The notes under the pieces are model-generated. The model worked only from the letters and a program-made list of their open reading frames with translations. It ran no database searches and was not told the DNA's origin. From assembly GCF_005876855.1 (NCBI RefSeq), contig NZ_QLAE01000035.1, positions 1 to 52,981 of the forward strand: DNA of 52,981 nt, read 5' to 3'. The translations under genes and the position numbers were made by a program. This document shows positions 27,408 through 45,548 of the stretch, piece after piece; position 1 is the first letter of the stretch; each line of letters begins with the position of its first letter. The stretch comes from Stutzerimonas nosocomialis (GTDB taxonomy: Bacteria; Pseudomonadota; Gammaproteobacteria; Pseudomonadales; Pseudomonadaceae).

Positions 27408-27625
27408 CGATGCTCTCCTGCTGGCCCGAAGCGAAACGGAAAGTCCCCGGGCGATCTGCAAAAGACCCGCGCCGCTCCGATTTGTTCGCTACGTCACACT
27501 CGCGGCCGCGCGCCAAGGGCAGTGCGACCTGTCGTCACGCCGGCGTCTCCGGACACCGCCGCGGCTTGGGCAGGAGCCGATCCGGCGTTATGCTGCCGGA
27601 CGTTATCTGCCGTCTGGTGACCCTC

Positions 27626-28072
27626 ATGCGCCGCCCGCTCCTGCTCGCCACCCTTTGCTCCGTCCTGTTCGCCAGCCTCGCCCAGGCCGCCGAGCCACTG
27701 GCCATCGACGTCTACCGCGACCCGAACTGCGGCTGCTGCACCGCCTGGATCGAGCACCTGGAAGAAAACGGCTTTGCCGTGACCGACCACGTCGAAACCG
27801 ACATGGCCGGCGTGAAGAGCCGCCTCGGCGTACCGCATCGCCTGGGCTCGTGCCATACCGGGGTCATCGACGGCAAGTTCGTCGAAGGCCATGTTCCGGC
27901 GGCCGACATTCTCAAGCTGCGCGCCCAGCCGGACCTGCTCGGCGCGGCGGTCCCGGGCATGCCGATCGGCTCGCCGGGCATGGAAATGGGCGATCGCCAC
28001 GACGCCTACCAGGTGATCGGCCTGGATCGGCAAGGCCAGGAATCGGTCCTCTCCCAATACCCGGCCCGCTGA
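27626..28072 (+). CDS. DUF411 periplasmic metal-binding-like protein
   Basis: A 148-residue protein with a signal peptide (about 1-21, ending LAQAAEP). The mature part starts with IDVYRDPNCGCCTAWIEHLE, the conserved DUF411 cysteine motif, and includes SCHTGVIDGKFVEGHVP. DUF411 proteins are often found with copper or other metal-resistance genes and are proposed to bind metal; activity is unproven. An upstream in-frame ATG at 27590 exists but the 27626 start gives a clean signal peptide. It is the last recognisable chromosomal gene before the mobile region. Confidence 0.85.
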   Translation: MRRPLLLATLCSVLFASLAQAAEPLAIDVYRDPNCGCCTAWIEHLEENGFAVTDHVETDMAGVKSRLGVPHRLGSCHTGVIDGKFVEGHVPAADILKLRAQPDLLGAAVPGMPIGSPGMEMGDRHDAYQVIGLDRQGQESVLSQYPAR

Positions 28073-28141
28073 TCGTCATCCCCTATCCCCAAAGGCCGCT
28101 TGCGTTACATATAGCACGTAAAAGTGCGTAATTTTGATAAG

Positions 28142-28225: not shown

Positions 28226-29683
28226 ATGGCTTCGGTTAGCGTCGTCGCAAAAATCGTAGAGGACAACACAGGGGTCGCAAGCGAGCTCCCTTTGCTGATA
28301 ACAGAGGAGGGGGAGCTTTCTCCTCTGACCGACTACCTCTTGTACCTACACGCCAATGGGCGCTCCAAGTCGACGCTTGAGAAAACGGTTCGTGCGGTGG
28401 CGATGCTTCTTGACTACATGGAAGCAAACGCTGATGCGTTCACAGACCCCGAGAAGTTGTTCCAGGCGTTCGTCAGGCGGCTGTACAGCGGGACAGCTTC
28501 GGAGGCGGGCCTAGACCCTTCCGGTCTGTACTGGGTGCCCGCCTCCGAAGCGACAGTGAGAGAGCGCATCATCGCACTCACGGGCTTCACGGAATGGCTT
28601 GCTGATAAGCAGGGCACCAAGCCGCTGAACCCTTTACGCAAAGCCACGCCTCACGAAGAGCGCCTCAACTACGCGGCATGGTTTCGGCGAAATCAGAACG
28701 ATTTCCTAGGCCACATCAAAGACAAGTCAATCAGCACCACCGTCAAGCGTGCGCGGAGCATCAAGGGCCGCACCCCGCTGGCGAAGACGGAGGATGACGC
28801 GATCTCCTTTCCGAATGCCAAATTCGAAGCCTTCTTCACCCAAGGCATCGGCGGCGCCAAAGATCCCCGAGTCGCTCTGCGGGACAAGCTGATTCTCCTT
28901 TTAATGCACGGCGCGGGGCTTAGGATCAGCGAGGCCATGCTGCTGTGGGTCACCGATGTTTTTGAGAATCCCGCCGACCCAAGCCAAGCGCTTGTACGCA
29001 TCTACAGCGAGCGCGAAGGTGTTGCCCCCGAAGGCTGGAAGAGTCGCAAGGGCGAGCGAACCCGCAAGGTGTATCTGAAAGAGAAGTACGGGCGCATACC
29101 TCGCTGCGAGATGAAGGGGACGCAGTACCTGGGCTGGAAGGCCAAGCTTGTCGATGACAAGGACGGCTACTTGATTGCGCAGTGGTTCCCAGTCGATTTT
29201 GGCCGGGTTTTCATGGCCCTATGGAAGACCCACCTGAAATACCGCGCAACAGCGGACGCGCATCACCCCTACGCATTCATCAGCTTCGACAGCAAGGCGT
29301 TTGGCAATCCTTATACGATCAACGCCTTTAATCAGAACTATGCCGCCGGTCTGCGCCGCATCGGCCTGGAGCCGAACAAAGCCGAGGGGCTCGATCCCCA
29401 TGGGCATCGGCACAACTACGGGCGGCGTCTGACCCAGGCGGGCATCGACCCGCTGATCCGAAAGAAATGCCTTCACCACAAGTCCCTTGAGTCGCAAACG
29501 GTCTATACCCTGCCGGGCAACCAGGACGTTTCGAACATGCTCAGCGCGGCCTCCGAGCAACTGGCGCGGCCCGACGCCAAGATTATGGTCACGGACTGGA
29601 AGGCACTGGTTGAGCACGGCTTTGAGGACATCGATCCGCAGGGGTTTTACACCGGCAAGCGGCCGCGACTGGAAGGGGCATGA
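28226..29683 (+). CDS. gmtY: Gamma-mobile-trio tyrosine recombinase GmtY
   Basis: A 485-residue site-specific recombinase. The C-terminal catalytic domain shows Arg I at R233 in HGAGLRISE, the HxxR box at H392-R395 in DPHGHRHNYGRR, a histidine at 417/418 in CLHHKS, and the nucleophile Tyr at Y427 in SQTVYTLPG. The N-terminal part (about 30-130) looks like a SAM-like core-binding domain. It would cut and rejoin DNA to move the island. The ATG at 28226 follows AAGGGGGTGG. The last four bases overlap the next gene. The base composition is visibly less GC-rich than the flanking chromosome. Confidence 0.85.
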   Translation: MASVSVVAKIVEDNTGVASELPLLITEEGELSPLTDYLLYLHANGRSKSTLEKTVRAVAMLLDYMEANADAFTDPEKLFQAFVRRLYSGTASEAGLDPSGLYWVPASEATVRERIIALTGFTEWLADKQGTKPLNPLRKATPHEERLNYAAWFRRNQNDFLGHIKDKSISTTVKRARSIKGRTPLAKTEDDAISFPNAKFEAFFTQGIGGAKDPRVALRDKLILLLMHGAGLRISEAMLLWVTDVFENPADPSQALVRIYSEREGVAPEGWKSRKGERTRKVYLKEKYGRIPRCEMKGTQYLGWKAKLVDDKDGYLIAQWFPVDFGRVFMALWKTHLKYRATADAHHPYAFISFDSKAFGNPYTINAFNQNYAAGLRRIGLEPNKAEGLDPHGHRHNYGRRLTQAGIDPLIRKKCLHHKSLESQTVYTLPGNQDVSNMLSAASEQLARPDAKIMVTDWKALVEHGFEDIDPQGFYTGKRPRLEGA

Positions 29684-32325
29684 GAATGGCGCAGAAGAAA
29701 ACCAATGGGCGCTCGGCTGATCTGACACTCTCCTGGCTCACGCGCTCGCATGGCGAAGACTGGCTGCAATGGCAGCAGTATGCGGCCGAGTGGATGGCGA
29801 CTCAGGACGCTGGCGTTGCTCATAGACTGAAGGCTCTCCGTCATTTCTTCGTCACCTACCTGATGCGCCATGCCTCCTACGCCAACGATGTCACGGCCTT
29901 TTTCAAGGGGCATGCCGGACACAGAGCGTCGTCCCAGGAGTTCGTCGAGGCTATGCAGGCTGCGGGCGTCAACGATCAGCGCGTGCAGGCGGAGTATGTA
30001 AATTACGTGGCTGCCTTCTTCGACCACGTCATCGAGCAGCATTACAGCGCCGAGGACGATCACGGTGTCGCACGACCCATTGTCTCGAATCCTTGCGAGC
30101 GGATCGCGAAACAGGGCTCGACGCAGGAGACCGTCAGGAACCCGCTGCCGTACCGCTACATTCAGCAGCTACGACAGATCCTCTGCCGTTACGCTCACGG
30201 CAGCGAGCAAGAGGACTCACAAGAAGGTGCTGCCTGTAACGCCCGCTGGACGAATCGCCATTTCCGTGACTGGTCGTGGGCGCATGAGCATGTGTTCTAC
30301 GCGTGGTTCGAGGTGGAGCCCGAGATCATCGACCGCGACGACCCCGACTGCGTATGGCGCGCCAAAGTGGTCAAGCGCAAAAACACGAAGACCACCATCC
30401 ACCAGATGTGGTCGCCGGTCACCGCAATGCTGCTCTTCGTGAAGCTGCATCTGCCGCTGCGCACCTATCAGGTTCGCTTTCTCGATTCCGGCGAAGCCGA
30501 TACCTGGCGCTATGAGGGCGGGCGCTGGGTAGCGAATACCCATCCCTTCGTCTACGGCAGCAAGAAGCGTCCTTACGCCAAGGGCGTGTTCCGTCGCACC
30601 TACGATGCGATGACGGAGACCTACGCCACCGCGCTCTACGTCTCCACCAACAAGACCGCAGATCAGAACAAGGGCGAAGTGGATCGCGGCTACACGATTC
30701 CTTGGCAGCACGAGGAACTGCTGTACTGGCTGGAGAAGCTGCGCAACTGGCAGGAGAAGTACAACCCGATCACTGCGCCGACCCATGCGAGCACACTGGG
30801 CAGGAAGCATGTTGGCGCGACCAAGAGCCCATCCGCACTGAAGGCCATGGGCGAGTATTGCTTCCTGTTCCGGGACGCCAGCGCAAAAAGCGCGGAAGAC
30901 CGCACCAAGCCGATTACCGAGCTTTCCTGCGCATTGTCCTGGCATCAACTGCTACTTCAGTTGGAGCAGAACCTGGCAGCGACGGGCCATAAACTGAGCG
31001 ACGGCACCGCACTGAAACTGGTGGAAGACTACCCGGACGACACGCCTGACGGGGCTAAAACGAAGACCCTGTTCCCACTGCACAGCCTCCGGGTGTCCCT
31101 GATCACTGCCTTCACCATGGACACGGCCCTGCCCCTGCCGGTGGTCTCCAAGCTTCTGGCGGGCCACACGCGCCTGCTGATGACGATCTACTACAACAAA
31201 ATCACCCCCTCCGTCATGGCGGAGAAAATGGAAGAGGCGCACGCGGCGCTGGATGCCAAGGCGCAAGCCTCGCTCCGCACCTTTCTCAAGAATGCGGAAC
31301 TCTCCCAGATCCAGGCTCGCACCGCCTGCAACAGCGAGGAATCAGTCGAGGCGGCCCTCGCTAACCGCAATCCCATCGGTTGGGAGCACCGCTCGGCAGG
31401 GCTGTGCCTGGTCGGCGGCAATACCGTCCGCTCGGACGAGCTGAGCACGCTGGGCGGCTGCTGGAACGGCGGCCCCGTCGTTAAGGAAGCCGCAGTCGTG
31501 CATTCCCGCGCTTATGCCCCAGTGCCCCACGGGCCGGAGAACTGTATCCGCTGCCGCTGGTTCATCACTGACGCCAGCTATCTGCCCGCACTGAGCAGCC
31601 AGTTCAACCAGATCAGCTACAAGGCCCACCAGGCGGCGAGTCTGGCGATGGAGATCGAGGGCGAGCTGGAAGCGCTAAAGGACGAGCTGTTCTTCGCTGA
31701 GGAGCAAGGCGCACCGTTCACCAAGCACCATGAGCTTCAAGTGCTGGAGCGACGCTATGAGAAGCAGAAAGTGGAGGCCGATGAGTACGCCAAGGACTTT
31801 ATCGCCTGCTTCAATCTGATCCAGCGCTTGATGGACATCGAGAACCAGCGCGACGAGGCCGACGAGGGTCAGAAGCTCGTCGCCGTGGGCTCTCGCGAGG
31901 ATCTGGCGGTAAGCATGCGTTTTATCGAGACCGACTCAGAGCTGCTGCACCTGTCGCTGCTCTGTGAGGATGCGGAGTTCTATCCCGACCTACAGGATGA
32001 CCTTCGAAAGACCCCGGTCATCGCCAAGCGCACGCTCGCACTCAGCCGCATGATGATGCGGAAGGGGTATCAGCCGCTGTTGATGGAAATGGACGAGCGG
32101 GCGCAGTTGATCGCCGCAAACGCCCTCATGCGCAAAATGGCCAAGATCGCGCACCCGACCGACAAGCTGGAGGGCTACCGGATCGCGGCGAACTACATCG
32201 AGGCCCAGGGGTATTTGGTAGACGACCGGCTTCTTGAGGCGGGAATCGACCAGATGAGCCAGGCCGCGCCGCTTGCCTTGCCGAGCATCAAGCAACGGCT
32301 TATCCAACATGAGGAGGTCATCTGA
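29680..32325 (+). CDS. gmtZ: Gamma-mobile-trio integrase GmtZ
   Basis: An 881-residue protein with a tyrosine-recombinase-like active site in its middle: HSLRVSLIT (H468, R471), AGHTRLL (H496) and tyrosines Y504/Y505 in IYYNK. A possible zinc pair C622-x-x-C625 lies in ENCIRCRWF, followed by a long charged helical region (about 640-760) suited to DNA or protein contacts. It is far longer than ordinary integrases. Start ATG 29680 overlaps the stop of gmtY; a second ATG two codons later is equally possible. It is presumed to work with GmtY in transposition of the island. Confidence 0.8.
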   Translation: MRMAQKKTNGRSADLTLSWLTRSHGEDWLQWQQYAAEWMATQDAGVAHRLKALRHFFVTYLMRHASYANDVTAFFKGHAGHRASSQEFVEAMQAAGVNDQRVQAEYVNYVAAFFDHVIEQHYSAEDDHGVARPIVSNPCERIAKQGSTQETVRNPLPYRYIQQLRQILCRYAHGSEQEDSQEGAACNARWTNRHFRDWSWAHEHVFYAWFEVEPEIIDRDDPDCVWRAKVVKRKNTKTTIHQMWSPVTAMLLFVKLHLPLRTYQVRFLDSGEADTWRYEGGRWVANTHPFVYGSKKRPYAKGVFRRTYDAMTETYATALYVSTNKTADQNKGEVDRGYTIPWQHEELLYWLEKLRNWQEKYNPITAPTHASTLGRKHVGATKSPSALKAMGEYCFLFRDASAKSAEDRTKPITELSCALSWHQLLLQLEQNLAATGHKLSDGTALKLVEDYPDDTPDGAKTKTLFPLHSLRVSLITAFTMDTALPLPVVSKLLAGHTRLLMTIYYNKITPSVMAEKMEEAHAALDAKAQASLRTFLKNAELSQIQARTACNSEESVEAALANRNPIGWEHRSAGLCLVGGNTVRSDELSTLGGCWNGGPVVKEAAVVHSRAYAPVPHGPENCIRCRWFITDASYLPALSSQFNQISYKAHQAASLAMEIEGELEALKDELFFAEEQGAPFTKHHELQVLERRYEKQKVEADEYAKDFIACFNLIQRLMDIENQRDEADEGQKLVAVGSREDLAVSMRFIETDSELLHLSLLCEDAEFYPDLQDDLRKTPVIAKRTLALSRMMMRKGYQPLLMEMDERAQLIAANALMRKMAKIAHPTDKLEGYRIAANYIEAQGYLVDDRLLEAGIDQMSQAAPLALPSIKQRLIQHEEVI

Positions 32326-33005
32326 TGGAGATCGATATCGACGTCATTCTTGAGGATCTCAAAGAAGGCAAGACGGCGAAGACGCAGCAGTCGCTCGACA
32401 AGCTCAATCAAACCTTGTGCGACTATTACGAGCGCGGCGAACGCGACTTCTCGATCACCACCATCGGTCGGGTTTCGGCAGAGGACGGCGGTGTCGGCTA
32501 CCAGTCCGTCCGGGCGACAGCTAACAAGCACTACCGCGATCTGATCGAGGCATGGGCGGCGAAGGCCAAGACCACCACCAAAAAGCCCCTCAGCCCCCAA
32601 AGTCGATCCCGCCGAGCACCTCAGGACAATCAATTGCTTGAGCGCATTCCCGATCCCGCCCTGCGGGTGCTGTTCGGCCAGATCATCGCCGAGCGCAACC
32701 GCTACCGTACTCAGCTCAATATTCTCAAGAACCAAGCTGAGGTCGTGATCGATAAGCGTCCGGTGAGGCAGTTTGAAGTCAGCGCCGAACCCTCCGTCGA
32801 GCTTCTCCCTTCGCTCAAGGGCATTGCCTCCGATAACGAGATAAAGGCGCTTCGGTTCGCCGCGTCCGACGAATGTATCGAGCGCCGGGGGTGGCTGGTC
32901 ACGCAGGCCGGACAGGTGAAAGACGAGCTTGGGGAGGAGGTGTTCCCCCGTGGTTTCATGACGGGCCTCCGCAAGCTCGTCGGGGAAGTTGACTCCGATG
33001 AGTAG
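32325..33005 (+). CDS. gmtX: Gamma-mobile-trio small protein GmtX
   Basis: A 226-residue basic, soluble protein whose start ATG shares one base with the gmtZ stop. No catalytic motif is visible; the charged N-terminus (DVILEDLKEGKTAKTQQSLD) and helical middle (LFGQIIAERNRYRTQLNIL) suggest a DNA- or partner-binding helper. In the known trio the third gene is a small protein required with the two recombinases. Its call rests mainly on position and size. Confidence 0.72.
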   Translation: MEIDIDVILEDLKEGKTAKTQQSLDKLNQTLCDYYERGERDFSITTIGRVSAEDGGVGYQSVRATANKHYRDLIEAWAAKAKTTTKKPLSPQSRSRRAPQDNQLLERIPDPALRVLFGQIIAERNRYRTQLNILKNQAEVVIDKRPVRQFEVSAEPSVELLPSLKGIASDNEIKALRFAASDECIERRGWLVTQAGQVKDELGEEVFPRGFMTGLRKLVGEVDSDE

Positions 33006-33419
33006 TCATCGGGTTTGATTCTGTTACAGATTCAAACTCATCTGGTCGGACTAGGAGATTTCAAAATGCAATCGTCGGACGACAGATAAGCCGAGTAAAA
33101 CGACTCACAAAATGAGACATCATGCCCAAGAGGCCCTTTGCCTCTTGGATGCAGCCTCTGGCAAGGTACAGCATTCGCTGAATGCCCCCGGTTTTCCATG
33201 TGACTGGGGCTGCTTCCGGCCAGAAGCAGTCAGTCAATGCGTTACAGTGATTTTTTGCAGCTCTTTATAGAGCCGTTAGCTGCCGCCACCAATAATCCAT
33301 AGGCCTGCCAGTCGTCAGAGAGTCTTATTCTCGATCAGGCGATTTCCCCGTGGATGACCAGTAGCTCACTGGTGATGGAGCCAGAGTCCTGTCTTCGAAT
33401 GCAGGACTCCTGGCTTTGC
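33006..33419. other. Non-coding junction with several hairpins between the trio and the efflux operon
   Basis: No gene is seen in these 414 bases. Structures are: an 11-pair hairpin with one mismatch at about 33011-33035 (GTTTGATTCTG, loop TTA) just after gmtX; a perfect 8-pair stem at 33126-33148 (CCAAGAGG); an interrupted inverted repeat near 33200-33236 (CTGCTTC/GAAGCAG with outer TGACTG/CAGTCA); and ACCAGT/ACTGGT around 33356-33373. One end of the mobile island may lie here, but no repeat proves it. Confidence 0.5.
33379..33415 (-). terminator. Stem-loop ending the efflux operon
   Basis: Arms AGCCAGAGTCCTG and its complement form a 13-pair stem with one bulged C. It begins four bases beyond the stop of the outer-membrane gene. 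It has no T-run, so it may be an RNA-stability hairpin rather than a terminator. Confidence 0.4.
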
Positions 33420-34853
33420 TCACTCAGCGCCGATCCCGGCCATCGGTTCAGTTTGGCCCCAGCCACCGCCCAGAGACCTGAACAGGTCAACCAGCGCAAT
33501 CTGCCGTTCCGTGCTGATTTGAATTAGTGTGGTCTGGTTGCTAAAGGTGCTGCGCTGGGCGTCAAGATAACGCAGGTAGTCGTCCACGCCGCCCTCGTAA
33601 CGCGCCTTAGCCAGGGCCATCGCAGCCTCGCTGGAACCGGCCAGAGCCTGGCGGGCAGCCTCCTCGCGGCGCAGGGTGTCGGTGGCGGCCAGGGCATCGG
33701 CCACTTCGCGGAAGGCGGTCTGGATGGTGCCTTCGTAGTCGGCCACCGCCGCGTCCTGGCGCACTTCGGCGAGGTCCAGGTTGGCGCGGTTGCGGCCACC
33801 GGCGAAGATCGGCAGCGACAGCGTCGGGGCAAAGCTCCAGGCCCGCGAGCCGCCATCGAACAATCCGGACAACTCGGCACTGGAGCTGCCCACCGAACCG
33901 GTCAGGCTGATCCGGGGAAAGAACGCGGCGCGAGCTGCACCGATATCGGCATTGCGCGCCTTGAGGCGGTGCTCGCTGGCGAGAATGTCCGGGCGCCGTT
34001 CGATCAGTTCCGAGCTGGTGCCGGGGGCGATGTCCTGCAGCACCATCAGGTCGTCGCGGGGCGTCGCGGGCAGCAGGCGAGCGGCATCTGGCGTGCCGAG
34101 CAACAGGACCAGGGCGTTGTCCGCCTGGCGTAACTGGCGTTCGGTGCTCTCGCGCTCGGCCCTAGCCTGTTCGGCAAGGCCGACCGCTTCCTGGTAATCC
34201 AGGGCGGTGGCGGCCCCCGCTGCACGGCGCTGGCTGACCAGCTCCAGCGAGGCCATGCGGCTGTCCAGGGTTTGTTCGACCAGGGCCATGCGGCGTAGCG
34301 CACCATCGCGGGTCAGGTAGGCCTGGATGACCTCGGCAACCAGGCTGATCTGCGTGGCACGGGTCGCCTCCTCGGTCGCCAGGTAGGTCTCCAGCACGGC
34401 CTCGGAGAGGTTGCGCACGCGGCCGAACAGGTCGACTTCGTACTCCGCGAGGCCGAGGCCGACCTGATAGTTGCTGGTCACTTCCGAGCGCCCGGTCTGC
34501 GACAGATCGGCAGGCAGGCGCTGGCGGTTGCCGCTGGCATTGGCGTTGATCGAAGGCAGGCGATCAGCACGCTGGATGCGGTACTGGGCACGCGCAGCTT
34601 CGATATCCAGCAGCGCCTGGCGCAGGCTGCGGTTGTTGCTCAGCGCCGTATCCACCGCGCGGCGCAAGTCGGCATCGACGATGAAGGTCTGCCAGTCCAG
34701 CGCCTGGGCACGGGCGCCCTCCGCGTCGGCGGCTTGCCAGTGCGACGCGACCGGTGCCTGCGGGCGCTCGTAGGTCGGGGCCAGCGAACACCCCGCCAGG
34801 GCGGCGATGGCCAGGGGCAGCAGAGCGCGACGGAGCATGAAGTGAGAGGTCAT
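33420..34853 (-). CDS. RND efflux outer-membrane lipoprotein (OprM/TtgC-like)
   Basis: A 477-residue outer-membrane channel of the TolC/OprM family. It has a lipoprotein signal peptide ending in the lipobox LAGC (Cys about residue 22), the family opening LAPTYERPQAPV, and two repeats of the outer-membrane efflux fold (helical hairpins with LRQALLDIEAARAQYRIQRADRLPSI and later ERRPDILASEHRLKARNADIGAARAAFFPRISL). It would form the exit duct for the pump. Third gene of the operon, four bases after the pump stop. Confidence 0.92.
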   Translation of the reverse strand: MTSHFMLRRALLPLAIAALAGCSLAPTYERPQAPVASHWQAADAEGARAQALDWQTFIVDADLRRAVDTALSNNRSLRQALLDIEAARAQYRIQRADRLPSINANASGNRQRLPADLSQTGRSEVTSNYQVGLGLAEYEVDLFGRVRNLSEAVLETYLATEEATRATQISLVAEVIQAYLTRDGALRRMALVEQTLDSRMASLELVSQRRAAGAATALDYQEAVGLAEQARAERESTERQLRQADNALVLLLGTPDAARLLPATPRDDLMVLQDIAPGTSSELIERRPDILASEHRLKARNADIGAARAAFFPRISLTGSVGSSSAELSGLFDGGSRAWSFAPTLSLPIFAGGRNRANLDLAEVRQDAAVADYEGTIQTAFREVADALAATDTLRREEAARQALAGSSEAAMALAKARYEGGVDDYLRYLDAQRSTFSNQTTLIQISTERQIALVDLFRSLGGGWGQTEPMAGIGAE

Positions 34854-34857
34854 CGCA

Positions 34858-37800
34858 TTACTCCGCTTTATGCAGGGGATGGTTGTCGGTTTGCTGAGGT
34901 TTGGTGCGCAGCAGCGACAGCACCCAGACGAAGAAGATCGGCACGAAGATCACCCCGAGCATGGTCGCGCTGAGCATCCCGCCCAGCACCCCGGTGCCCA
35001 GTGCGCGCTGGCTCGCAGCGCCGGCGCCAGTGGCGATGGCCAGCGGCACCACGCCGAGCATGAACGCCATGGAGGTCATGATGATCGGGCGGAAACGCAG
35101 GCGCGCGGCTTCGACAGCGGCATCGCGCAGCGAGTAGCCGTCTTCCCACAGGTCCTTGGCGAACTCGACGATGAGAATGGCGTTCTTCGCCGCCAGGCCG
35201 ATCACGGTGATCAGGCCGACCTTGAAGTACACGTCGTTGGGCAGGCCGATGGCAGTCACCGCCAGTACCGCGCCGAGTGCGCCGACCGGCACGATCAGCA
35301 TCACCGTCAGCGGGATCGCCCAGCTCTCGTAGAGCGCCACCAGCAGCAGGAACACCACGGTGATGGCCAGCGCGAACAGCATCGTCGCCTGGCCGCTGGC
35401 GACCCGCTCCTGATACGAAAGCCCGGTCCACTCGTAGCCGATACCTTCGGGCAGCTCGGCAGCGATGCGCTCCAGTTCGAGCATCGCCTCGCCAGTGCTC
35501 ACGCCGGGCGCGGCGTCACCGGCAATGCGGATCGACGGGTAACCGTTGTAACGCGCGACCTGCACCGGGCCTTCCTCCCAGCTCGTGGTGACGAAAGCAC
35601 TCAGCGGTACCAGGCTGCCGCTGTCGTTGGGCACATGCAGGCGCAGGACGCTTTCCGGCGTCATGCGCTCGGCCTGTTCGGCCTGTACCACCACGCGCTG
35701 CTGGCGGCCGGCGTTGGCGAAGTCGTTGATCACCGACGAGCCGAACGCAGTGGACAGCGCGCTGCTGATCGCTTCGAAGCTGACACCCAGCGTGCGGGCC
35801 TGCTCACGGTCGATCACCAGGCGCAGCTGCGGCGCCTCGGCCAGACCTTCCATCATGGCGTAGAGGAACTTCGGATTGCCGTTGACCTTGCCCAGCACTT
35901 CATCGCGCGCTGCCAACAGGGCATCGCGGCCAAGGCCGGCGCGGTCCTGCAGGCGCAGGGCGAAACCACCCGAGTTGCCCAGGCCTTCGACCGGCGGTGG
36001 CGGCACCGCCATGATCGCGCCGTCATCGAGGTTGGCGAAGTGCTGGTTGACCGCAGCCGACTCGGCTTCCGGCGACTGCGAAGAATCTCGCTCGGACCAG
36101 TCCTTGAGCAGCGGGAAGGCAATGGCCGCGTTCTCACCCATGCCGGAGAAGCTGAAGCCGAGGACCAGAAAGGACGTCTGCACGGCCTCGCGGGCCATCA
36201 GAAACTCTTCCAGCTCCTCACCCGTGGCCGAGGTGCGCTCACGGGTAGCGCCTGGCGGCAACTGGATGTCGACGATCATGTAGCCCTGGTCTTCCACCGG
36301 CACGAAGGATTCCGGCAGGCGCAGGTAGAAGAAACCCATCAGCACCACCACGCCCAGGTAGATGAACATCACCCGCCCGGCGCGCGGCACCAGCTTGCCG
36401 TTGAGTTTGGTGTAGCGGCCGGTCAGGGCGGTGAACTTGCGGTTGAACCTGCCGAAGAAACCGGTCTTCTCGTGATGGCCCTCGGGGATCGGTTTGAGCA
36501 GCGTGGCACACAGCGCCGGGGTGAAGGTCAGCGCAAGAAAGCCCGAGAACAGGATCGACACCGCCAGCGACAGCGAGAACTGCTGGTAGATCACCCCCAC
36601 CGAGCCGGCCATGAAGGCCAGCGGCAGGAACACCGCCGACAGCACCAGGGTGATACCGATGATCGCCCCGGACACCTGCCCCATCGCCTTGATGGTCGCC
36701 GGCACCGGCGCCAGGCCTTCCTCGGCCATGATCCGCTCGACGTTCTCCACCACCACGATGGCGTCGTCCACCAAGATGCCGATGGCCAGCACCATGCCGA
36801 ACATGGTCATCATGTTCACCGAGAAGCCCAGCAGGTACATGAAGGTCAGGGTACCAAGCAGACACACCGGCACGACGATGGACGGGATCAGGGTGTAGCG
36901 CACGTTCTGCAGGAACAGGAACATCACCAGGAACACCAGCACCATGGCCTCGATGAGGGTCATGATGACCTTGTCGATGGCCACGTCGACGAAGCGCGAG
37001 GTGTCGTACGGCACGGAGAACTCGACGTTGTCCGGGAAGTTGGCCGACAGCTCGGTCAGACGCTGCTTGACCGCCTCGGCGGTCTGGATCGCGTTGGCAC
37101 CGGGCGACAGCTGCACGGCGGCGGCAACGGCGGGCTTGCCGTCCTGGCGCGAGCCGAAGTTGTAGTCCTGGCTGCCGACCTCGATGCGTGCCACGTCGCC
37201 CAGGGTCAGGCGCGAGCCGTCCTGGTTGGCACGCAGCACGATGGCGGCGAATTCCTGCGGGTTGTCCAGGGTGCCCTTGACCGCCAGGGTCGCCGTCAGC
37301 TCCTGCTCGCTGGAACCCGGCGTGCTGCCGAAGGCACCGGCCGGCACCTGCACGTTCTGCGCGCGGATCGCGTTGTTCACGTCATCGATGGACAGGCCGT
37401 AGCCGACCAGCTTCTGCGGATCGATCCACACGCGCATGGCCGCCTCGGAGGCGAAGAACTGCAGCTTGCCGACGCCGTTCACGCGACGGATTTCGTTGTT
37501 GATGTTGCGCGCGGCGTAATCGGCCAGCGCCGTGACGTTGGCGTCCTTGTCGCCATCGGTGTAGCTCAGCGCATAGATCAGCAGGAAGCCGGCGGTGGCC
37601 TGCTCGGTCTGGATGCCGAGGGTCAGCACGGCCTGCGGCATACGTGCCTCGGCCTTCTTCAGACGGTTCTGCACGTCAACCTGGGCCAGTTCGGGGTCGG
37701 TCCCTGGCTGGAAGGTGACGGTGATCTCGGCGATGCCGTTGGCGTTGCTGGTGGACTCGAAGTACAGCAGGTTCTTGGCGCCGTTGAGTTCTTCCTCGAT

Positions 37801-37992
37801 GACGCTGGTCACCGAGTCGGTGAGCACCTGCGCCGAAGCGCCGGGATAGGTGGCGGTCACGGTGATCTGCGGCGGCGCCACGTTGGGGTACTGCGCCACC
37901 GGCAGGAACGGGATGGCCAGCAGGCCACCCAGCGAGATGAACAGGGCGACTACCCAGGCGAAATTGGGGCGCCGGATGAAAAACAGGGACAT
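34858..37992 (-). CDS. RND multidrug efflux pump, inner-membrane subunit (HAE1 family)
   Basis: A 1044-residue proton-driven pump of the AcrB/MexB/TtgB type. It opens with MSLFFIRRPNFAWVVALFI, has the proton-relay Asp pair in GILVDDAIVVVENVER (helix 4) and the Lys in GLAAKNAILIVEFAKD (helix 10), and about 12 membrane helices with two large periplasmic loops. Substrates are probably amphiphilic drugs, solvents or organotins. TtgB and the P. stutzeri TbtB are plausible relatives but were not compared directly. The stop is 4 bases from the outer-membrane gene, the start 15 bases from the fusion-protein gene. Confidence 0.95.
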   Translation of the reverse strand: MSLFFIRRPNFAWVVALFISLGGLLAIPFLPVAQYPNVAPPQITVTATYPGASAQVLTDSVTSVIEEELNGAKNLLYFESTSNANGIAEITVTFQPGTDPELAQVDVQNRLKKAEARMPQAVLTLGIQTEQATAGFLLIYALSYTDGDKDANVTALADYAARNINNEIRRVNGVGKLQFFASEAAMRVWIDPQKLVGYGLSIDDVNNAIRAQNVQVPAGAFGSTPGSSEQELTATLAVKGTLDNPQEFAAIVLRANQDGSRLTLGDVARIEVGSQDYNFGSRQDGKPAVAAAVQLSPGANAIQTAEAVKQRLTELSANFPDNVEFSVPYDTSRFVDVAIDKVIMTLIEAMVLVFLVMFLFLQNVRYTLIPSIVVPVCLLGTLTFMYLLGFSVNMMTMFGMVLAIGILVDDAIVVVENVERIMAEEGLAPVPATIKAMGQVSGAIIGITLVLSAVFLPLAFMAGSVGVIYQQFSLSLAVSILFSGFLALTFTPALCATLLKPIPEGHHEKTGFFGRFNRKFTALTGRYTKLNGKLVPRAGRVMFIYLGVVVLMGFFYLRLPESFVPVEDQGYMIVDIQLPPGATRERTSATGEELEEFLMAREAVQTSFLVLGFSFSGMGENAAIAFPLLKDWSERDSSQSPEAESAAVNQHFANLDDGAIMAVPPPPVEGLGNSGGFALRLQDRAGLGRDALLAARDEVLGKVNGNPKFLYAMMEGLAEAPQLRLVIDREQARTLGVSFEAISSALSTAFGSSVINDFANAGRQQRVVVQAEQAERMTPESVLRLHVPNDSGSLVPLSAFVTTSWEEGPVQVARYNGYPSIRIAGDAAPGVSTGEAMLELERIAAELPEGIGYEWTGLSYQERVASGQATMLFALAITVVFLLLVALYESWAIPLTVMLIVPVGALGAVLAVTAIGLPNDVYFKVGLITVIGLAAKNAILIVEFAKDLWEDGYSLRDAAVEAARLRFRPIIMTSMAFMLGVVPLAIATGAGAASQRALGTGVLGGMLSATMLGVIFVPIFFVWVLSLLRTKPQQTDNHPLHKAE

Positions 37993-38007
37993 GAGAGGTT
38001 CTCCGGC

Positions 38008-39171
38008 TTACTGCGCCTGGGACTGTGGAGCGGCTTCGGCGGCATCTTGCTCGCGGGGGATGACCTTGGCGCCCGGACGGATAGCCGCCAGCGAGCTGGT
38101 GATCACCTTGTCGCCGACCTGCAGGCCCTCGCTGATCTGCCAGCGCGAGCCCTGCATGGCACCGGTGGTGACCTGGCGCGCCTCGACGGTATCGCCCTGC
38201 CCCAGCAGCATCACGCTGGCCTGACCGTCAGCCGAACGCTGCACGGCACGTTGCGGCACCAGGATGGCGTTCTGGTTGAGCCCCTGCGGCGTGCGCACAC
38301 GCACGTACATACCCGGCAGCAACACGCCCTCGGGGTTGTCGAACTGCCCTCGCAGGGCGATTTGCCCGGTGCTGCGATCCACCGAGATATCAGTGAACAG
38401 CAGCGTGCCCTTGCTCTCGATATCGGTACCATCGACGCGCAGCGACAACGGCTGGTCGCTAGCGCCGGCAACCTTGCCCTCGGCGATGGCCGCGCGCAGG
38501 CGCAGGGCGTCGGCAGCCGGCTGGGTGAAGTCGGCGTACACCGGATCAAGTTGCTGGATACGCGCTAGCAGAGTCGCCTCACCCTGGCCTACCAGCGCCC
38601 CTTCGGTGACCTGGGCTCGGCCGATGCGTCCGGCAATGGGTGCGCGAACCTCGGCATAGCCCAGGTCCAGGCGGGCGGTTTCGACATTGGCCTGGGCCGA
38701 TCGCTTGTCGGCCTGGGCACTCTGCAGAGCGGCCTTGGCGTTGTCGAAATCCTGCTGGCTGACGGCGTTGATCTTCACCAGCGGCTCGTATCGGCGAACC
38801 ATCGCCTGGGCCTGGAACAACTGCGCCTCGGCGCGGGCCAGTTCACCCTGCGCCCGCGACAGGGCCGCTTTGAACGGCGCAGGGTCGATCTGGAACAGCA
38901 CGTCGCCGGCCTTCACGTCGGCCCCTTCCTCAAAGGTGCGCTTGAGCACGATCCCCGCCACCCGCGCGCGCACCTCGGCGACACGCACCGGCTCGATGCG
39001 TCCTGGTAGCTCGGCAACCACGGTGAAGGGCTCGGTCTGCACGCTGAGCACATCGACTTCACGCGCCGGCGCCTCCTCCCCTTGCTCTTCGGGCTTGTCG
39101 CAGCCAACCAGGGTCACGGCGACCAAACAGGAGATCACGGAAAAAGTGATCCACTCGCGAAATTTGTTCAT
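38008..39171 (-). CDS. RND efflux membrane fusion protein
   Basis: A 387-residue periplasmic adaptor joining pump and outer-membrane channel. The N-terminus is a lipoprotein signal with lipobox LVGC (Cys about 24). Typical segments are ELPGRIEPVRVAEVRARVAGIV, a helical hairpin (RAQGELARAEAQLFQAQAMV and ALQSAQADKRSAQANVE) and the lipoyl/barrel part YAEVRAPIAGRIGRAQVTEG. It is the first gene of the operon; its promoter region contains the 48-base palindrome described separately. A Gly-Gly or Arg substitution in the adaptor hairpin was not assessed. Confidence 0.93.
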   Translation of the reverse strand: MNKFREWITFSVISCLVAVTLVGCDKPEEQGEEAPAREVDVLSVQTEPFTVVAELPGRIEPVRVAEVRARVAGIVLKRTFEEGADVKAGDVLFQIDPAPFKAALSRAQGELARAEAQLFQAQAMVRRYEPLVKINAVSQQDFDNAKAALQSAQADKRSAQANVETARLDLGYAEVRAPIAGRIGRAQVTEGALVGQGEATLLARIQQLDPVYADFTQPAADALRLRAAIAEGKVAGASDQPLSLRVDGTDIESKGTLLFTDISVDRSTGQIALRGQFDNPEGVLLPGMYVRVRTPQGLNQNAILVPQRAVQRSADGQASVMLLGQGDTVEARQVTTGAMQGSRWQISEGLQVGDKVITSSLAAIRPGAKVIPREQDAAEAAPQSQAQ

Positions 39172-39219
39172 ATCTCACCCAAGCACGAAGCCAGTACGTA
39201 GTCGAAGCCGCGCATGATC

Positions 39220-39267
39220 CACACTAAAATCAAATGAGTCAATATTGACTCATCTGATTTTAGTGTG
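39220..39267. promoter_or_regulatory. 48-base near-perfect palindrome, probable TetR operator
   Basis: Two 24-base arms differ at one position; the core is TGAGTCAATATTGACTCA and the outer arms read CACACTAAAATC. The centre lies between 39243 and 39244. It sits between the fusion-protein gene (start 39171, minus) and the TetR gene (start 39351, plus). TTGACT occurs on both strands inside it and can serve as a -35 box, with GATCAT 17 bases downstream on the minus strand. Binding of the repressor here would control both directions. Confidence 0.8.
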
Positions 39268-39350
39268 AACAAAGCTAGTATCCTCTTTGAGAAAAATGAG
39301 TGTTCTAGGAAAAATACCCGCATCTGCCTGCGATAGATAAAGAGTGACCG

Positions 39351-39908
39351 ATGGATTTAACTGCTGCCGATGAGAAATTGCTGAAGGCCCTGGCGATCGC
39401 CATCGTTGACCACCCGCGAGCCACGTTCAAAGAAATAGCCCAGGCAGCGGGAGTCAGCAAGGCGACGCTAAACAGGTTTTGCGGCACCCGCGACAACCTG
39501 ATCGAGATGCTTCTGGATCATGGTTCGGTGGTTATTTATCGGGTCATTGCCGATGCCGATCTTGAGTCGGCGCCCTTGGACGCATTGCATCGCCTGATCG
39601 AAGGCCATTTGACTCACAGGGAGTTGTTGGTTTTCCTCTCATTTCAGTGGCGCCCGGACACGTTTGATTTAGATGCAGGCGGCTGCCGATGGCTGCCTTA
39701 CTCAGAAACGCTGGACGAGTTCTTTCTACGCGGGCAAAAACTGGGCGTATTCCGTATCGATATCGGTGCCCCGGCGCTTACCGAAATCTTCTCCTCCTTG
39801 ATCTTCGGCCTGGTAGACGCCGAGCGCCGCGGCCGTATCGCACGCGCAGGTATGGCGGCGTTGATCGAGCAATTCTTCCTGAACGGCGCTTGCAACTACC
39901 AAACTTAA
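39351..39908 (+). CDS. TetR-family regulator of the RND operon
   Basis: A 185-residue regulator with an N-terminal helix-turn-helix (TFKEIAQAAGVSKATLNRFCG, about residues 23-43) and a helical ligand-binding C-terminal part (residues 60-185). It is divergent from the efflux operon and separated from it by the large palindrome, the usual arrangement for a local repressor released by pump substrates. The ATG at 39351 has AAGAG upstream. The ligand is unknown. Confidence 0.88.
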   Translation: MDLTAADEKLLKALAIAIVDHPRATFKEIAQAAGVSKATLNRFCGTRDNLIEMLLDHGSVVIYRVIADADLESAPLDALHRLIEGHLTHRELLVFLSFQWRPDTFDLDAGGCRWLPYSETLDEFFLRGQKLGVFRIDIGAPALTEIFSSLIFGLVDAERRGRIARAGMAALIEQFFLNGACNYQT

Positions 39909-40159
39909 CGGAAAGCAACGCTCAGTTTTTTTGCAATGGGTTGGCAGTGTCCGTTTTTGGCCGGTCGTGAGCGACCACAATAGGTTGGAATAGGCATACT
40001 CTTTTACCGGCAATCCCGCTCAGTTCGAGACAGGCCATTAGCTGCTGACGTGGTTAAAGCTGAAGTTTTACCTATTCCAGCTCAGTAGAGCTAAGGAAGG
40101 TCTGAAAAAGACTTCCCGAATCTGGTGAAACACGCCGATCCCGCCAGCCGAGTTTTTCC

Positions 40160-40673
40160 ATGAAGCAGATGACCTTCGCCGACGCCGAGTACGCCGGCAA
40201 GCGCAAGCAGACCCGTAAGGAATTGTTCCTGATCGAGATGGATCAGGTGGTGCCGTGGAAGGGATTGATTGCCCTGATCGAGCCACACTACCCAAAGGGT
40301 GAAGGTGGTCGTCCAGCCTATCCGCTGATGGCCATGTTACGTATCCATCTGATGCAGAACTGGTTCGGCTACAGCGACCCGGCCATGGAAGAAGCGCTCT
40401 ACGAGACGACCATCCTGCGTCAGTTCGCCGGGCTGAGCCTGGAGCGTATTCCCGACGAAACCACCATCCTAAATTTCCGTCGCTTGCTGGAGAAACATGA
40501 GCTGGCAGCCGGCATCCTCGGCGTAATCAATGGCTACCTGGGGGATCGCGGCCTGTCGCTGCGCCAGGGCACTATCGTCGATGCCACACTGATCCACGCG
40601 CCCAGCTCGACCAAGAACCAGGACGGCAAGCGCGATCCGGAGATGCACCAGACCAAGAAGGGCAACCAGTACT
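40160..40673 (+). pseudogene. IS5-family transposase, 5' exon
   Basis: These 171 codons plus one base encode the N-terminal half of an IS5 transposase: MKQMTFADAEYAGKRKQTRK, the helical YPLMAMLRIHLMQNWFGYSDPA block, and the first catalytic Asp in IVDATLIHAPSS. The frame then enters an intron after KKGNQY and stops at 40697-40699. If the intron is removed, the frame continues at about 42524. Translation without splicing gives a truncated, inactive protein. Confidence 0.88.
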
Positions 40674-41066
40674 GTGTGTCACGAACACAGGTCAGATGAC
40701 CTGTGCTGCTGTGCCGAAGATGGAAGTAGGCCTTCCGAAGTCGGCTTGCAGGAGCGGACTTCAAACCACCCGGTGCTGCTGCATCCAAAAGGTGTGGTGG
40801 TGAGCGACCGAGGAAAAGTCATCCCTGAGGATGGCAGGTGAGTATGGAGAAGATGAGCGAAAGCAAACCGTCCGATGACGCATCGTTATGCCCAAGGTGC
40901 TGCCGAAACTGAGGTGGAGTACTGGCTTCAGGACAAGTCGGGGCGTTACCTGCTTACGGACCCGATGGCAGCCGGTGTATAGGCGGCATGATCTTCATAC
41001 AGGCTTTGGTACGGAACGTGAGAACCTTGTTCCAGATGCGAAGGAAAATGACAAATGGCCAACACC

Positions 41067-41195
41067 ATGAGGAAGAATACCGATGCTGGAACGAGGGGCG
41101 GAGCCTCCCGTAGTAGCGATGAAGCCTCTGTAATGGAGGTGGAGCGAAGGGGCGGCGTTATCCGGCCGACGAGCGTTGCCAACCTCCGGGGATGA
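41067..41195 (+). CDS. Short open frame coupled to the intron reverse transcriptase
   Basis: A 42-codon frame, MRKNTDAGTRGGASRSSDEA at its start, ends in a TGA that overlaps the ATG of the reverse transcriptase (ATGA). It may be a leader that couples translation to the maturase, or simply intron RNA that happens to be open. No homology is recognised. Confidence 0.3.
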   Translation: MRKNTDAGTRGGASRSSDEASVMEVERRGGVIRPTSVANLRG

Positions 41196-42460
41196 GTGGC
41201 GTGAGCTCGGCGAAACCTTATGACATAGCGAAACGCACGGTATGGGACGCCTACCAGCAGGTCAGGGCCAACCGCGGTGCTGCCGGCATCGACGATGAAA
41301 CCATCGCCGATTTCGAGCGGGATCTGTCTAAGAATCTCTACAAACTGTGGAATCGGATGTCGTCGGGGTCGTACTTCCCGCCTCCGGTCAAGCAAGTAGA
41401 AATTCCCAAGGCATCGGGAGGCACGCGCAAGCTGGGAGTGCCCACGGTTGGTGATCGTGTCGCGCAAACCGTGGTCAAGCTTCTCATCGAGCCGGAGCTG
41501 GACTCGATCTTCCACTCGGACTCCTATGGGTACCGGCCGGGACGATCAGCGAAGCAGGCGGTGGCGATCACGCGTGAGCGCTGCTGGCGATACGACTGGG
41601 TGGTGGAGTTTGATATCAAGGCAGCCTTCGATCAGATCAATCATGGGTTGCTGATGAAGGCGGTGCGCCTGCACATCAAGGAGGACTGGATACTTCTGTA
41701 CATCGAGCGGTGGCTGGTTGCGCCGTTCGAAACGGATGACGGCATGCGCGTCCCACGCGAACGCGGCACCCCGCAAGGTGGAGTGATCAGTCCCCTCCTG
41801 ATGAATCTGTTCATGCACTATGCCTTCGACACCTGGATGCAACGTACCAGCCCCAACTGCCCGTTTGCCCGCTACGCCGATGATGCGGTGGTGCACTGCC
41901 GCAGTCGAAAGCAAGCGGAGTACGTGATGCGCTCCATTGCTTCACGGCTGGCTGTCTGTGGCTTGACGATGCACCCGGAGAAATCGAAGGTCGTGTACTG
42001 CAAGGACAGTAACCGTCGCGCAGGTTATCCGCATGTGAGCTTTACCTTCCTCGGCTTCACCTTTAGGCCGAGGAAGGCGCTCAGCAAACAAGACCAGCTC
42101 TTCACGAGCTTCCTTCCGGGAGCGAGTGCGGATGCCTTAAAGCGGATGCGGCAAGCGGTACGCAGGTGGCGACTCAATCGCCAAACCCACGTGACGCTGG
42201 TCGACGTGGCTCGGCTCTACAATCCAGTGATACAGGGGTGGTGGCAATACTATGGCTCGTTCTATCGGACAGCCATGCTTGGCATCTTCCAGCACATTGA
42301 CCGCGCGCTTGAACGCTGGGCCCGACGAAAATACAAGGCCCTTCATAGGCGCAAGCGGCGCATTAGCCAATGGCTGGACAAGATGCGGACTGTGGTACCC
42401 CGGCTGTTTCATCACTGGCGAGTGACCGGGCAGCAAGGTTGGATAACGGGAGCCGTATGA
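41192..42460 (+). CDS. ltrA: Group II intron reverse transcriptase/maturase (LtrA-like)
   Basis: A 422-residue protein that splices the intron RNA and copies it into DNA during retrohoming. The reverse-transcriptase domain shows GYRPGRSAKQAV, VVEFDIKAAFDQINH, GTPQGGVISPLLMN and the catalytic Y228-A-D-D231 in ARYADDAVVH. The C-terminal maturase (GIIM) region includes YNPVIQGWWQYYG. No HNH endonuclease domain follows, so target priming would use nicks or replication forks. Its stop codon lies inside domain V of the intron. Confidence 0.94.
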   Translation: MSGVSSAKPYDIAKRTVWDAYQQVRANRGAAGIDDETIADFERDLSKNLYKLWNRMSSGSYFPPPVKQVEIPKASGGTRKLGVPTVGDRVAQTVVKLLIEPELDSIFHSDSYGYRPGRSAKQAVAITRERCWRYDWVVEFDIKAAFDQINHGLLMKAVRLHIKEDWILLYIERWLVAPFETDDGMRVPRERGTPQGGVISPLLMNLFMHYAFDTWMQRTSPNCPFARYADDAVVHCRSRKQAEYVMRSIASRLAVCGLTMHPEKSKVVYCKDSNRRAGYPHVSFTFLGFTFRPRKALSKQDQLFTSFLPGASADALKRMRQAVRRWRLNRQTHVTLVDVARLYNPVIQGWWQYYGSFYRTAMLGIFQHIDRALERWARRKYKALHRRKRRISQWLDKMRTVVPRLFHHWRVTGQQGWITGAV

Positions 42461-42483
42461 CGCGAGAGTGTCACGTACGGTTC
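42450..42483 (+). ncRNA. Group II intron domain V
   Basis: A 34-base hairpin with arms GAGCCGTATG and TACGGTTC and an internal GCGAGAGTGT loop region, the most conserved part of group II introns and the site of the catalytic triad. It overlaps the last codons of the maturase gene. Confidence 0.88.
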
Positions 42484-42522
42484 TGCGAGCGGCTGCGGGG
42501 GCAGTTCCCGCGGCCGACTCAC

Positions 42523-42990
42523 CACTTCGGCATGAAGGCCCACATCGGTGTGGATGACGAGTCGGGGCTGGTGCACAGCGTGGTCGGCACGGCGGCAAAC
42601 GTGGCGGATATCACCCAGGTCGACAAACTGCTGCACGGTGACGAGAACGTCGTCTGCGCCGATGCCGGCTACACCGGCGTCGAAAAGCGCCCCGAACATG
42701 CTGGCCGCGAAGTGATCTGGCAGGTCGCAGCACGCCGCAGCACCTACAAGAAGCTCGATAAACGCAGCGCCCTGTACAAAGCCAAGCGCAAGATCGAGAA
42801 GGCCAAGGCACAAGTGCGAGCGAAGGTCGAGCACCCGTTTCGAGTGATCAAGCGCCAGTTCGGTTACGTGAAGGTGCGCTTCCGTGGCCTGGCCAAGAAC
42901 ACCGCTCAGCTGGTGACGCTGTTCGCGCTGTCGAACCTATGGATGGCGCGCCGACATTTGCTGACTACCGCAGGAAAGGTGCACCTGTAA
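42523..42990 (+). pseudogene. IS5-family transposase, 3' exon
   Basis: The C-terminal half of the split IS5 transposase. HFGMKAHIGVDDESGLVH leads in; VVCADAGYTGVEKR carries the second catalytic Asp and KVEHPFRVIKRQFGY carries the Glu. It ends at TAA 42988-42990. Joined to the 5' exon it yields a protein of about 326 residues, the usual size for this group. The upstream frame seen in the unspliced DNA comes from intron domain V/VI. Confidence 0.86.
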
Positions 42991-43147
42991 TGCGGAAAAT
43001 GGCTGCTGCGAGGTGCTCGCGGCGGCCAAAAACGGAGAACTGAGCGGGTTACCTGGTCGATTTTGATCGACGGCCCGCTTTCAAAAGCAGCGAGGGCTGA
43101 AGTCGACCGGAAATACAGGGGGCGGTTGCAGGAGCTGAGTGCAACAC

Positions 43148-43185: not shown

Positions 43186-43214
43186 GCGCCCCATCTGCTT
43201 GCGCGCGAGCGCTC

Positions 43215-44893: not shown

Positions 44894-44895
44894 GC

Positions 44896-45489: not shown

Positions 45490-45548
45490 CTTGGCTTCCT
45501 CAGTAGGGTGGATCGGAAACGGCGCGGCGAAGGCTGACTCGATCAGAT

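What the first reader, a model, noticed from the sequence alone, without database searches (positions are those of the whole stretch)
28226..33005. Gamma-mobile-trio cassette in a pseudomonad, next to an RND efflux operon
Three overlapping genes encode two large proteins with tyrosine-recombinase active sites and a third small protein, in the order and size of gmtY-gmtZ-gmtX. These modules are known mainly for carrying defence and toxin cargo. Here the adjacent intact block is a regulated multidrug pump, which would make resistance the cargo. The two recombinase active sites are directly visible; trio membership and cargo status are inferred.
Basis: partly seen in the sequence, partly recalled or inferred. 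Interest (0 to 1): 0.75.

Follow-up and report, generated by a model that had tools for sequence, protein, structure and literature searches.

The report
Mobile island carrying a tigecycline-resistance pump
A known kind of mobile genetic island has inserted into the stop signal of a gene in a pseudomonad chromosome and appears to carry a multidrug pump already known for making bacteria resistant to the last-line antibiotic tigecycline, together with chromate and arsenic resistance genes.

Summary
The three genes are gmtY-gmtZ-gmtX: all pass NCBIfam's curated cut-offs for gamma-mobile-trio (GMT) proteins. The left island end is exact: a congener (G002) matches up to window 28101 and then has an empty site, the terminator hairpin after the DUF411 gene. 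The other half of that terminator lies on contig C4 (20667), preceded by the end signature of other GMT loci. Window contig and C4 are not joined in the assembly. Between the ends lie the pump, a chromate operon, Tn402-type genes and (C4) arsenic genes. The pump is TMexCD-TOprJ, tmexC6D6-toprJ1b type: 99.6% nucleotide identity to a P. aeruginosa plasmid copy. It is a 6.75-kb unit with recurrent ends, found elsewhere in two trio-less congeners, so it probably entered ready-made. The passages I read name SE elements, IS and integrons as its neighbours; no listed paper pairs it with GMT. Side result: GMT islands of this clade tend to sit in intrinsic terminators: 28 of 39 left ends look so, against 17% of control positions. 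Movement was not shown.

The parts
27410..28072 (+). ORF with the DUF411 domain (called start uncertain); the island sits in the terminator that follows it
   Evidence: PF04214; the G002 match ends at 28101
28091..28101 (+). 5' half of the chromosomal intrinsic terminator (AAAGGCCGCTT); in G002 the uninterrupted site reads AAAAAGGCCGCTTCTGCGGCCTTTTT
   Evidence: the 3' half GCGGCCTTTTTCATC is at own-genome C4:20667
28104..28133 (+). GMT left end (GTTACATATAGCACGTAAAAGTGCGTAATT)
   Evidence: alignment with L088, L089, L090 starts at 28103/28104; imperfect inverted copy at the right end on C4
28142..28165 (+). terminator-like hairpin just inside the left end (AAGCCACCTTCGGGTGGCTTTTTC)
   Evidence: sequence; a hairpin lies at the same distance in L088-L090
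28226..29683 (+). gmtY, tyrosine recombinase
   Evidence: NF040693 546.2 bits, cut-off 340
29680..32325 (+). gmtZ, large tyrosine recombinase (Integrase_2)
   Evidence: NF047926 1032.8 bits, cut-off 600; PF13009
32325..33005 (+). gmtX, small accessory protein
   Evidence: NF040692 244.1 bits, cut-off 40
33006..33216 (.). spacer between gmtX and the pump unit; no match in the plasmid collection
   Evidence: query 32990-33230, blastn, E 1e-5
33217..39963 (.). tmexC6D6-toprJ1b-type pump unit with recurrent ends CGGCCAGAAGCAGTCAG and TGTCCGTTTTTGGCCG
   Evidence: 99.6% nt to NZ_CP073081 over 33216-39963; same ends in 5 of 5 loci compared; plasmid rows
33420..34853 (-). toprJ, outer-membrane channel
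   Evidence: TIGR01845; 476/477 aa identical to the plasmid copy
34858..37992 (-). tmexD, RND permease
   Evidence: NF000282; 1043/1044 aa identical
38008..39171 (-). tmexC, periplasmic adaptor
   Evidence: MexC-type model NF033138 605.7 bits, just under its cut-off 625; 387/387 aa identical
39351..39908 (+). tnfxB, regulator annotated TetR/AcrR-type in the plasmid record
   Evidence: 185/185 aa identical to the plasmid copy; no NCBIfam hit of its own
40091..43114 (+). IS whose transposase (DUF772 and DDE parts; IS5-type is recalled) is split by a group II intron (RT/maturase 41192-42460)
   Evidence: PF05598, PF01609, PF00078, PF08388; Rfam RF01999 and RF00029; bounds from relatives in G019 (unsplit) and G013
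43148..47722 (-). chromate resistance genes (MFS, ChrB-domain gene, superoxide dismutase, chrA 45549-46781, chrB 46778-47722)
   Evidence: TIGR00937; 43148-50511 is 98.4% nt identical to the annotated stretch in NZ_CP064948
47833..50517 (+). tniA-like and tniB-like genes (Tn402/Tn5053 type, name recalled), tniB cut short before IS21
   Evidence: PF09299, PF05621; 47833-47956 identical to a stretch in NZ_CP073081
50619..52914 (+). IS21-type istA-istB at the contig end
   Evidence: PF22483, PF01695; held once in the assembly

Best explanation
A GMT island, at least 45.5 kb long if window and C4 belong together, sits in the loop of the intrinsic terminator behind a chromosomal DUF411 gene. GmtY and GmtZ are two tyrosine recombinases that act on the island's two imperfectly inverted ends, with GmtX as accessory factor, in the manner proposed for Tn554 and SE elements (inferred). 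The island carries a resistance load: the TMexCD-TOprJ tigecycline/multidrug pump with its regulator next to the trio, then an IS, a chromate-resistance Tn402-type stretch and, on the far side of an assembly gap, arsenic resistance genes. The pump entered the island as a preformed 6.75-kb unit that also exists outside GMT islands; once inside the ends it would travel with the island. Shown: trio identity, left end and its target, a GMT-type right end at the matching flank, pump identity. Inferred: that both contigs are one island, that it is active, and that the pump moves with it.
For: Trio equivalogs over cut-off. G002 matches up to 28101, empty site there. Right chromosomal flank found at C4:20667 and collinear with G002 for 6.3 kb. 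C4:20622-20665 bears the right-end signature CACTCAYTCAC followed by a TATA core; the CACTCAYTCAC motif is in 15 of 83 other GMT loci scanned (many of the rest are cut by contig or flank ends), in most of them with the TATA core; it occurs once in C4:1-27000 and not in the window. The two ends resemble each other in inverted orientation (score 24; 2 of 5000 island 50-mers reach it). A Providencia plasmid GMT (61.6% GmtZ identity) is inserted in the same way in a terminator loop, with both ends and an empty site known. Close trios in Halomonas and in Camelimonas (an alphaproteobacterium; class recalled) match from 28103/28104 to 33004/33007 with no further match to the window's cargo in the DNA held. 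Pump identity.
Against: Window and C4 are separate contigs; other contigs may lie between and the right end could belong to a second element. The empty site rests on one congener: of 29 DUF411 loci looked at, only that of G002 has the same neighbour gene. C4:1.2-6.3 kb has relatives in 49 of 56 genus genomes, the own one included, so part of C4 may be ordinary genus DNA that came by another route. The pump unit lives without GMT in G010, G013 and many plasmids, so GMT need not have brought it. No excision or transfer was observed. My automatic terminator test fails on the window's own left flank (the C4 flank passes); the terminator there is seen only by comparison with G002.
Confidence: 0.77

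Rival explanations
1. The pump is not GMT cargo in any functional sense: a pre-existing GMT island was a landing pad, and the pump unit, the IS, the chromate stretch and the arsenic genes were inserted later by their own mobility systems; the GMT trio no longer moves anything of this size.
For: Pump unit has its own recurrent ends in 5 of 5 loci compared and occurs without GmtY in G010 and G013; nested IS, intron, tni genes and IS21; two of three annotated plasmid GMT loci start their cargo with a VPA1267 gene and an AAA ATPase (not 74), which are missing here.
Against: Both GMT ends and the three genes are intact by sequence; being inside the ends is what makes cargo, whatever the order of arrival.
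Confidence: 0.35
2. The right end on C4 belongs to another GMT island or to an old GMT scar, and the window's island ends elsewhere; the chromosome was rearranged.
For: The contigs are not joined.
Against: The C4 flank outside the end is the other half of the same terminator and continues collinear with G002 for 6.3 kb; only one GmtY over cut-off exists in the genome, so a second right end would be an orphan.
Confidence: 0.1
3. The pump is still inside an SE element (its published vehicle) that was inserted beside the trio.
For: The pump's published module is an SE, int1-int2-hp1-hp2, inserted in umuC (PMC10214605, PMC12108250); a umuC C-terminal fragment lies in C4.
Against: No SE-type proteins found in window 28102-52981 or C4:1-20700 with 7 query proteins; their source loci as positive control were found. 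The trio-pump spacer has no match in the plasmid collection, which holds the umuC insertions.
Confidence: 0.05

Closest known systems
Gamma-mobile-trio (GMT) islands (Mahata et al. 2024, Nat Microbiol; primary paper not held; seen only through passages of PMC12039261 and PMC12715929 and the NCBIfam models)
   Same: All three proteins, order and overlap, end sequences; cargo lies behind gmtX as in the three annotated plasmid loci
   Different: Cargo: those passages describe T6SS toxins and antiphage systems; here drug and metal resistance. Of 10 cargo proteins scanned, one marginal PADLOC match
GMT island on Providencia plasmid p16Pre36-NDM (NZ_KX832927)
   Same: GMT with resistance cargo: integron integrase, dfrA6-type gene and an erythromycin esterase inside the ends; inserted in a terminator loop
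   Different: GmtZ 61.6% identical; plasmid-borne; has VPA1267 and AAA ATPase genes; no pump
tmexCD-toprJ on SE elements (SE-PaeBT2436, PMC10214605) and in the three contexts listed in PMC12108250
   Same: Same pump; PMC12108250 lists CP073081, the closest copy here, as IS1182 with tnfxB6-tmexC6D6-toprJ1b
   Different: No SE core genes found; neighbour is a GMT trio; not in umuC
Tn554, GInt, RIT elements
   Same: Two or more tyrosine recombinases; Tn554 and GInt with a small accessory protein (PMC10214605, sections read)
   Different: Named as separate groups there; GInt and SE have four core genes; not compared with GMT proteins by me

Membership tests
GMT island | GmtY of the curated family | tested here: met
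   546.2 bits, cut-off 340
GMT island | GmtZ of the curated family | tested here: met
   1032.8 bits, cut-off 600
GMT island | GmtX of the curated family | tested here: met
   244.1 bits, cut-off 40
GMT island | Gene order Y-Z-X in one overlapping run at one island end | tested here: met
   ORFs overlap by 4 and 1 bases; left end 122 bases before gmtY
GMT island | Two recognisable ends around cargo | tested here: inconclusive
   Both ends found and alike, but on two contigs not joined
GMT island | Defence or toxin cargo (usual, not required) | tested here: inconclusive
   10 selected cargo proteins scanned against PADLOC: one marginal hit (E 0.00094) of the pump regulator, none for the other 9; toxins not scanned
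GMT island | Movement | not testable with these tools
   needs the strain
SE element (as vehicle of the pump) | intA-tfp-intB-srap core genes | tested here: not met
   7 query proteins (3 from L169, among them the protein that PMC10214605 names for SE-PaeBT2436, and 4 from G010), no tblastn hit in the held island; intA and tfp of SE-PaeBT2436 itself were not among the queries
TMexCD-TOprJ (tmexC6D6-toprJ1b type) | Near-identity of all four genes to a named member | tested here: met
   TMexC 387/387, TMexD 1043/1044, TOprJ 476/477, regulator 185/185 against NZ_CP073081; variant name from a PMC12108250 passage; PLSDB labels it TMexD2/TOprJ1
TMexCD-TOprJ (tmexC6D6-toprJ1b type) | Resistance phenotype | not testable with these tools
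   needs susceptibility tests on the strain

The most novel reading that the evidence does not exclude
GMT modules are a further class of multi-recombinase element, beside SE and perhaps a four-gene element in G010, that has taken up the tmexCD-toprJ unit, and this GMT clade has a general safe-harbour rule: it inserts into the loops of intrinsic transcription terminators on chromosomes and plasmids, so it can spread resistance cargo without breaking genes.
Probability: 0.5. Interest if true: 0.75.

Novelty: new member of a known kind. Interest (0 to 1): 0.58.

Why it matters
The passages I could read describe tmexCD-toprJ on SE elements, plasmids, ICEs, IS units and integrons, and GMT islands as armories of toxins and antiphage systems. 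A GMT island holding this pump with chromate and arsenic resistance would be a new chromosomal vehicle and would couple metal and drug selection. The terminator rule gives a simple way to find the exact ends of GMT islands and makes their integration mechanism testable in harmless strains.

Tried and rejected
Unrelated phage integrases: rejected by the trio models. Class 1 integron beyond IS21: the qacE-sul1 stretch of L168 matches the own genome only at 47833-47939 in the window; no integron integrase over cut-off, the best being two pieces on contig C60, one with stops. SE core genes beside the pump: none found. Spacer 33006-33216: no plasmid match. Extra empty sites at DUF411: only G002 of 29 loci has the same neighbour gene by a motif search within the held flank. 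A first left-end count with a faulty pattern (9 of 13, and 0 of 5 at lower identity) was replaced. In one search, 5 loci of at least 55% GmtZ identity and 31 others had no left end found and are not counted; at least four ends (L098, L101, L102, L185) were set on an inner repeat; in the lower-identity group 3 of 5 were terminator-like. In one search, L140 was left out by hand and right-end hits in L098, L101, L103, L110 (contig ends) and L101, L155 (no TATA core) were dropped before the count. The terminator criterion was set after seeing examples. Structure prediction of GmtX and GmtZ: machine busy. The GMT primary paper is not held, so I cannot say whether the terminator rule or resistance cargo is in print there. 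Searches: GMT, terminators; tmexCD; both: 272 papers hold two or more of five terms; none of the 40 listed, best first, holds a GMT term.

Full report
What is there. The three ORFs at 28226-33005 are gmtY, gmtZ and gmtX. Each is over the curated cut-off of the matching NCBIfam equivalog, they overlap by 4 and 1 bases, and the tyrosine-recombinase residues are invariant in 18-row alignments (the first catalytic Arg of GmtZ was not assigned). In the genus, 6 of 56 genomes searched, the own one included, have a GmtY over cut-off; in the family, 14 of 398 sampled have a GmtZ relative at E 1e-60 or better. The closest GmtZ relatives found lie outside the family: Halomonas rhizosphaerae 86%, Camelimonas fluminis 82%, against 62% for the best other family member in the sample. 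In 83 GMT loci given to a script (80 kept of 106 found, and 3 plasmid loci), GmtY was found in 79, GmtZ in 80, GmtX in 78 (several loci are cut by contig ends).

The left end. G002, a congener without GmtY, matches the window from 6929 to 28101 (pieces of 88-92% identity, with an unmatched stretch at 16.5-20.1 kb) and then departs. At that point G002 reads AAAAAGGCCGCTT CTGCGGCCTTTTT, an intrinsic terminator by its sequence, behind the DUF411 gene; the window has its first half and then the island. The Halomonas and Camelimonas trios match from 28103/28104 to 33004/33007, and no cargo match to the window was seen in the DNA held, so the element begins at about 28104.

The right end. G002's continuation is found in the own genome on contig C4 from 20667, collinear for 6.3 kb. 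Just before it C4 reads CACTCATTCACTCAATTACACAGTATTTGCTATAAAGAGCGTCGA and then GCGGCCTTTTTCATC, the other half of the terminator. Inverted, this resembles the left end (score 24; 2 of 5000 random island 50-mers reach it). The same kind of right-end signature, CACTCACTCAC, is in 15 of 83 other GMT loci, in most followed by a TATA-rich core; in C4:1-27000 it occurs once, in the window never. A GMT island on the plasmid p16Pre36-NDM, compared with an empty IncC plasmid, shows the same anatomy: both ends, and insertion in the loop of the terminator behind traN, GGGGCC TTTC GGCCCC.

A target rule. Outward flanks of GMT ends look like half terminators (GC stem then T run): 17 of 23 junctions against 15.8% of 20000 random positions; with left ends only, 28 of 39 loci of at least 55% GmtZ identity against 16.6% of control positions. 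The window's own left flank fails this mechanical test and counts as a miss in both; the C4 flank passes. The criterion was set after seeing examples; dropped rows are told in Tried and rejected. Other GMT islands of the genus (G016, G019, G054) share one sequence 162-165 bases before gmtY, where a frame that reads NGCSWNSCTFCD stops, so they seem to use another target and the rule is for this clade only.

The cargo. Right behind gmtX and a 211-base spacer without plasmid match comes a 6.75-kb unit, 33217-39963, with regulator, adaptor, permease and outer-membrane gene. It is 99.6% identical over 33216-39963 to plasmid pNDTH9845 of P. aeruginosa; TMexC 387/387, TMexD 1043/1044, TOprJ 476/477, regulator 185/185. 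PMC12108250 (passages read) names that record's cluster tmexC6D6-toprJ1b. The unit has the same ends, CGGCCAGAAGCAGTCAG and TGTCCGTTTTTGGCCG, in 5 of 5 loci compared base by base: the window, pNDTH9845, pVIM-24-ZDHY414, G010 and G013. In the 19 rows that cover the pump (60 of 613 records were listed), 19 of 19 begin at 33216 or 33217 and 17 of 19 end at 39963-39966. G010 and G013 have no GmtY match. In pVIM-24-ZDHY414 the unit stands near the protein that PMC10214605 names for SE-PaeBT2436; in G010 it lies about 12 kb from a four-gene operon with two integrase-like proteins, both below cut-off. So the unit is a parcel of its own, now inside a GMT island. Further right lie an IS split by a group II intron, a chromate operon with tniA- and tniB-like genes and an IS21 element to the contig end. 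On C4, inside the right end, are ArsA, an ArsR-type regulator, ArsH and the ArsJ-associated GAPDH over cut-off, and ArsC-like proteins below it; at its left are sugar, MBOAT and SulP genes, of which most of C4:1-9594 is also found on contig 49 of G017 with chromate genes nearby. C4:1.2-6.3 kb has relatives in 49 of 56 genus genomes, the own one included but not G002, so how it came here is open.

How it most likely works. Two tyrosine recombinases and a small helper act on two inverted ends and place the island in a terminator loop; the parallel to Tn554 and SE elements (PMC10214605: abstract, passages and sections 9, 10, 12, 13 read) is inference. The island has terminator-like hairpins just inside both ends, which could keep host and island transcription apart. 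The pump is held down by its regulator and gives resistance to several drugs including tigecycline; that is from the abstract of PMC10269656 on tmexC6D6-toprJ1b, not tested here.

Against this reading. The two contigs are not joined; the empty site has one witness (1 of 29 DUF411 loci with the same neighbour); the pump does not need GMT elsewhere; no movement was seen.

Novelty. The trio is an ordinary GMT member. GMT with resistance cargo is not alone: p16Pre36-NDM's GMT holds an integron integrase with a dfrA gene and an erythromycin esterase. New, as far as searches and the passages read show, is the GMT context of tmexCD-toprJ and the terminator rule; the primary GMT paper could not be read, so either may be partly in print.

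Noticed in passing
window 40091-43114: An IS transposase is split by a group II intron with reverse transcriptase/maturase; Rfam matches two parts of the intron and a congener (G019) holds the unsplit IS.
   Followed up: partly
L080, L079/L087, L084/L085 (G016, G019, G054): Three congeners carry another GMT clade, with a GmtZ frame enlarged by N-terminal repeats in G016 and G019, all behind one and the same sequence where a frame reading NGCSWNSCTFCD stops; in G039 a further GMT lies beside a greB-like gene (name recalled).
   Followed up: partly
L185 (NZ_KX832927, Providencia p16Pre36-NDM): A GMT island on an NDM plasmid carries an integron integrase, a dfrA6-type gene and an erythromycin esterase between its ends.
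   Followed up: partly
L072-L073 (G010:C13): The same pump unit lies about 12 kb from a four-gene operon with two integrase-like proteins, beside two ttcA-like frames (name recalled); this may be an SE or GInt element.
   Followed up: partly
L089 (Camelimonas fluminis): A GMT trio with 82% GmtZ identity in a record named Camelimonas (an alphaproteobacterium, recalled), outside the gamma group of the family's name; its left flank fails the terminator test.
   Followed up: no
window 33217 and 39963: The tmexCD-toprJ unit ends in short inverted motifs (CGGCCA/TGGCCG) in the five contexts compared, with no recombinase gene inside; what moves it is unexplained.
   Followed up: partly
own genome C60:3073-4016 (L204, L205): A broken integron integrase on another contig.
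   Followed up: no
own genome C4:10549-11208 (in L077): A C-terminal umuC-like fragment inside the island; umuC is the published target of the module that carries tmexCD-toprJ.
   Followed up: no
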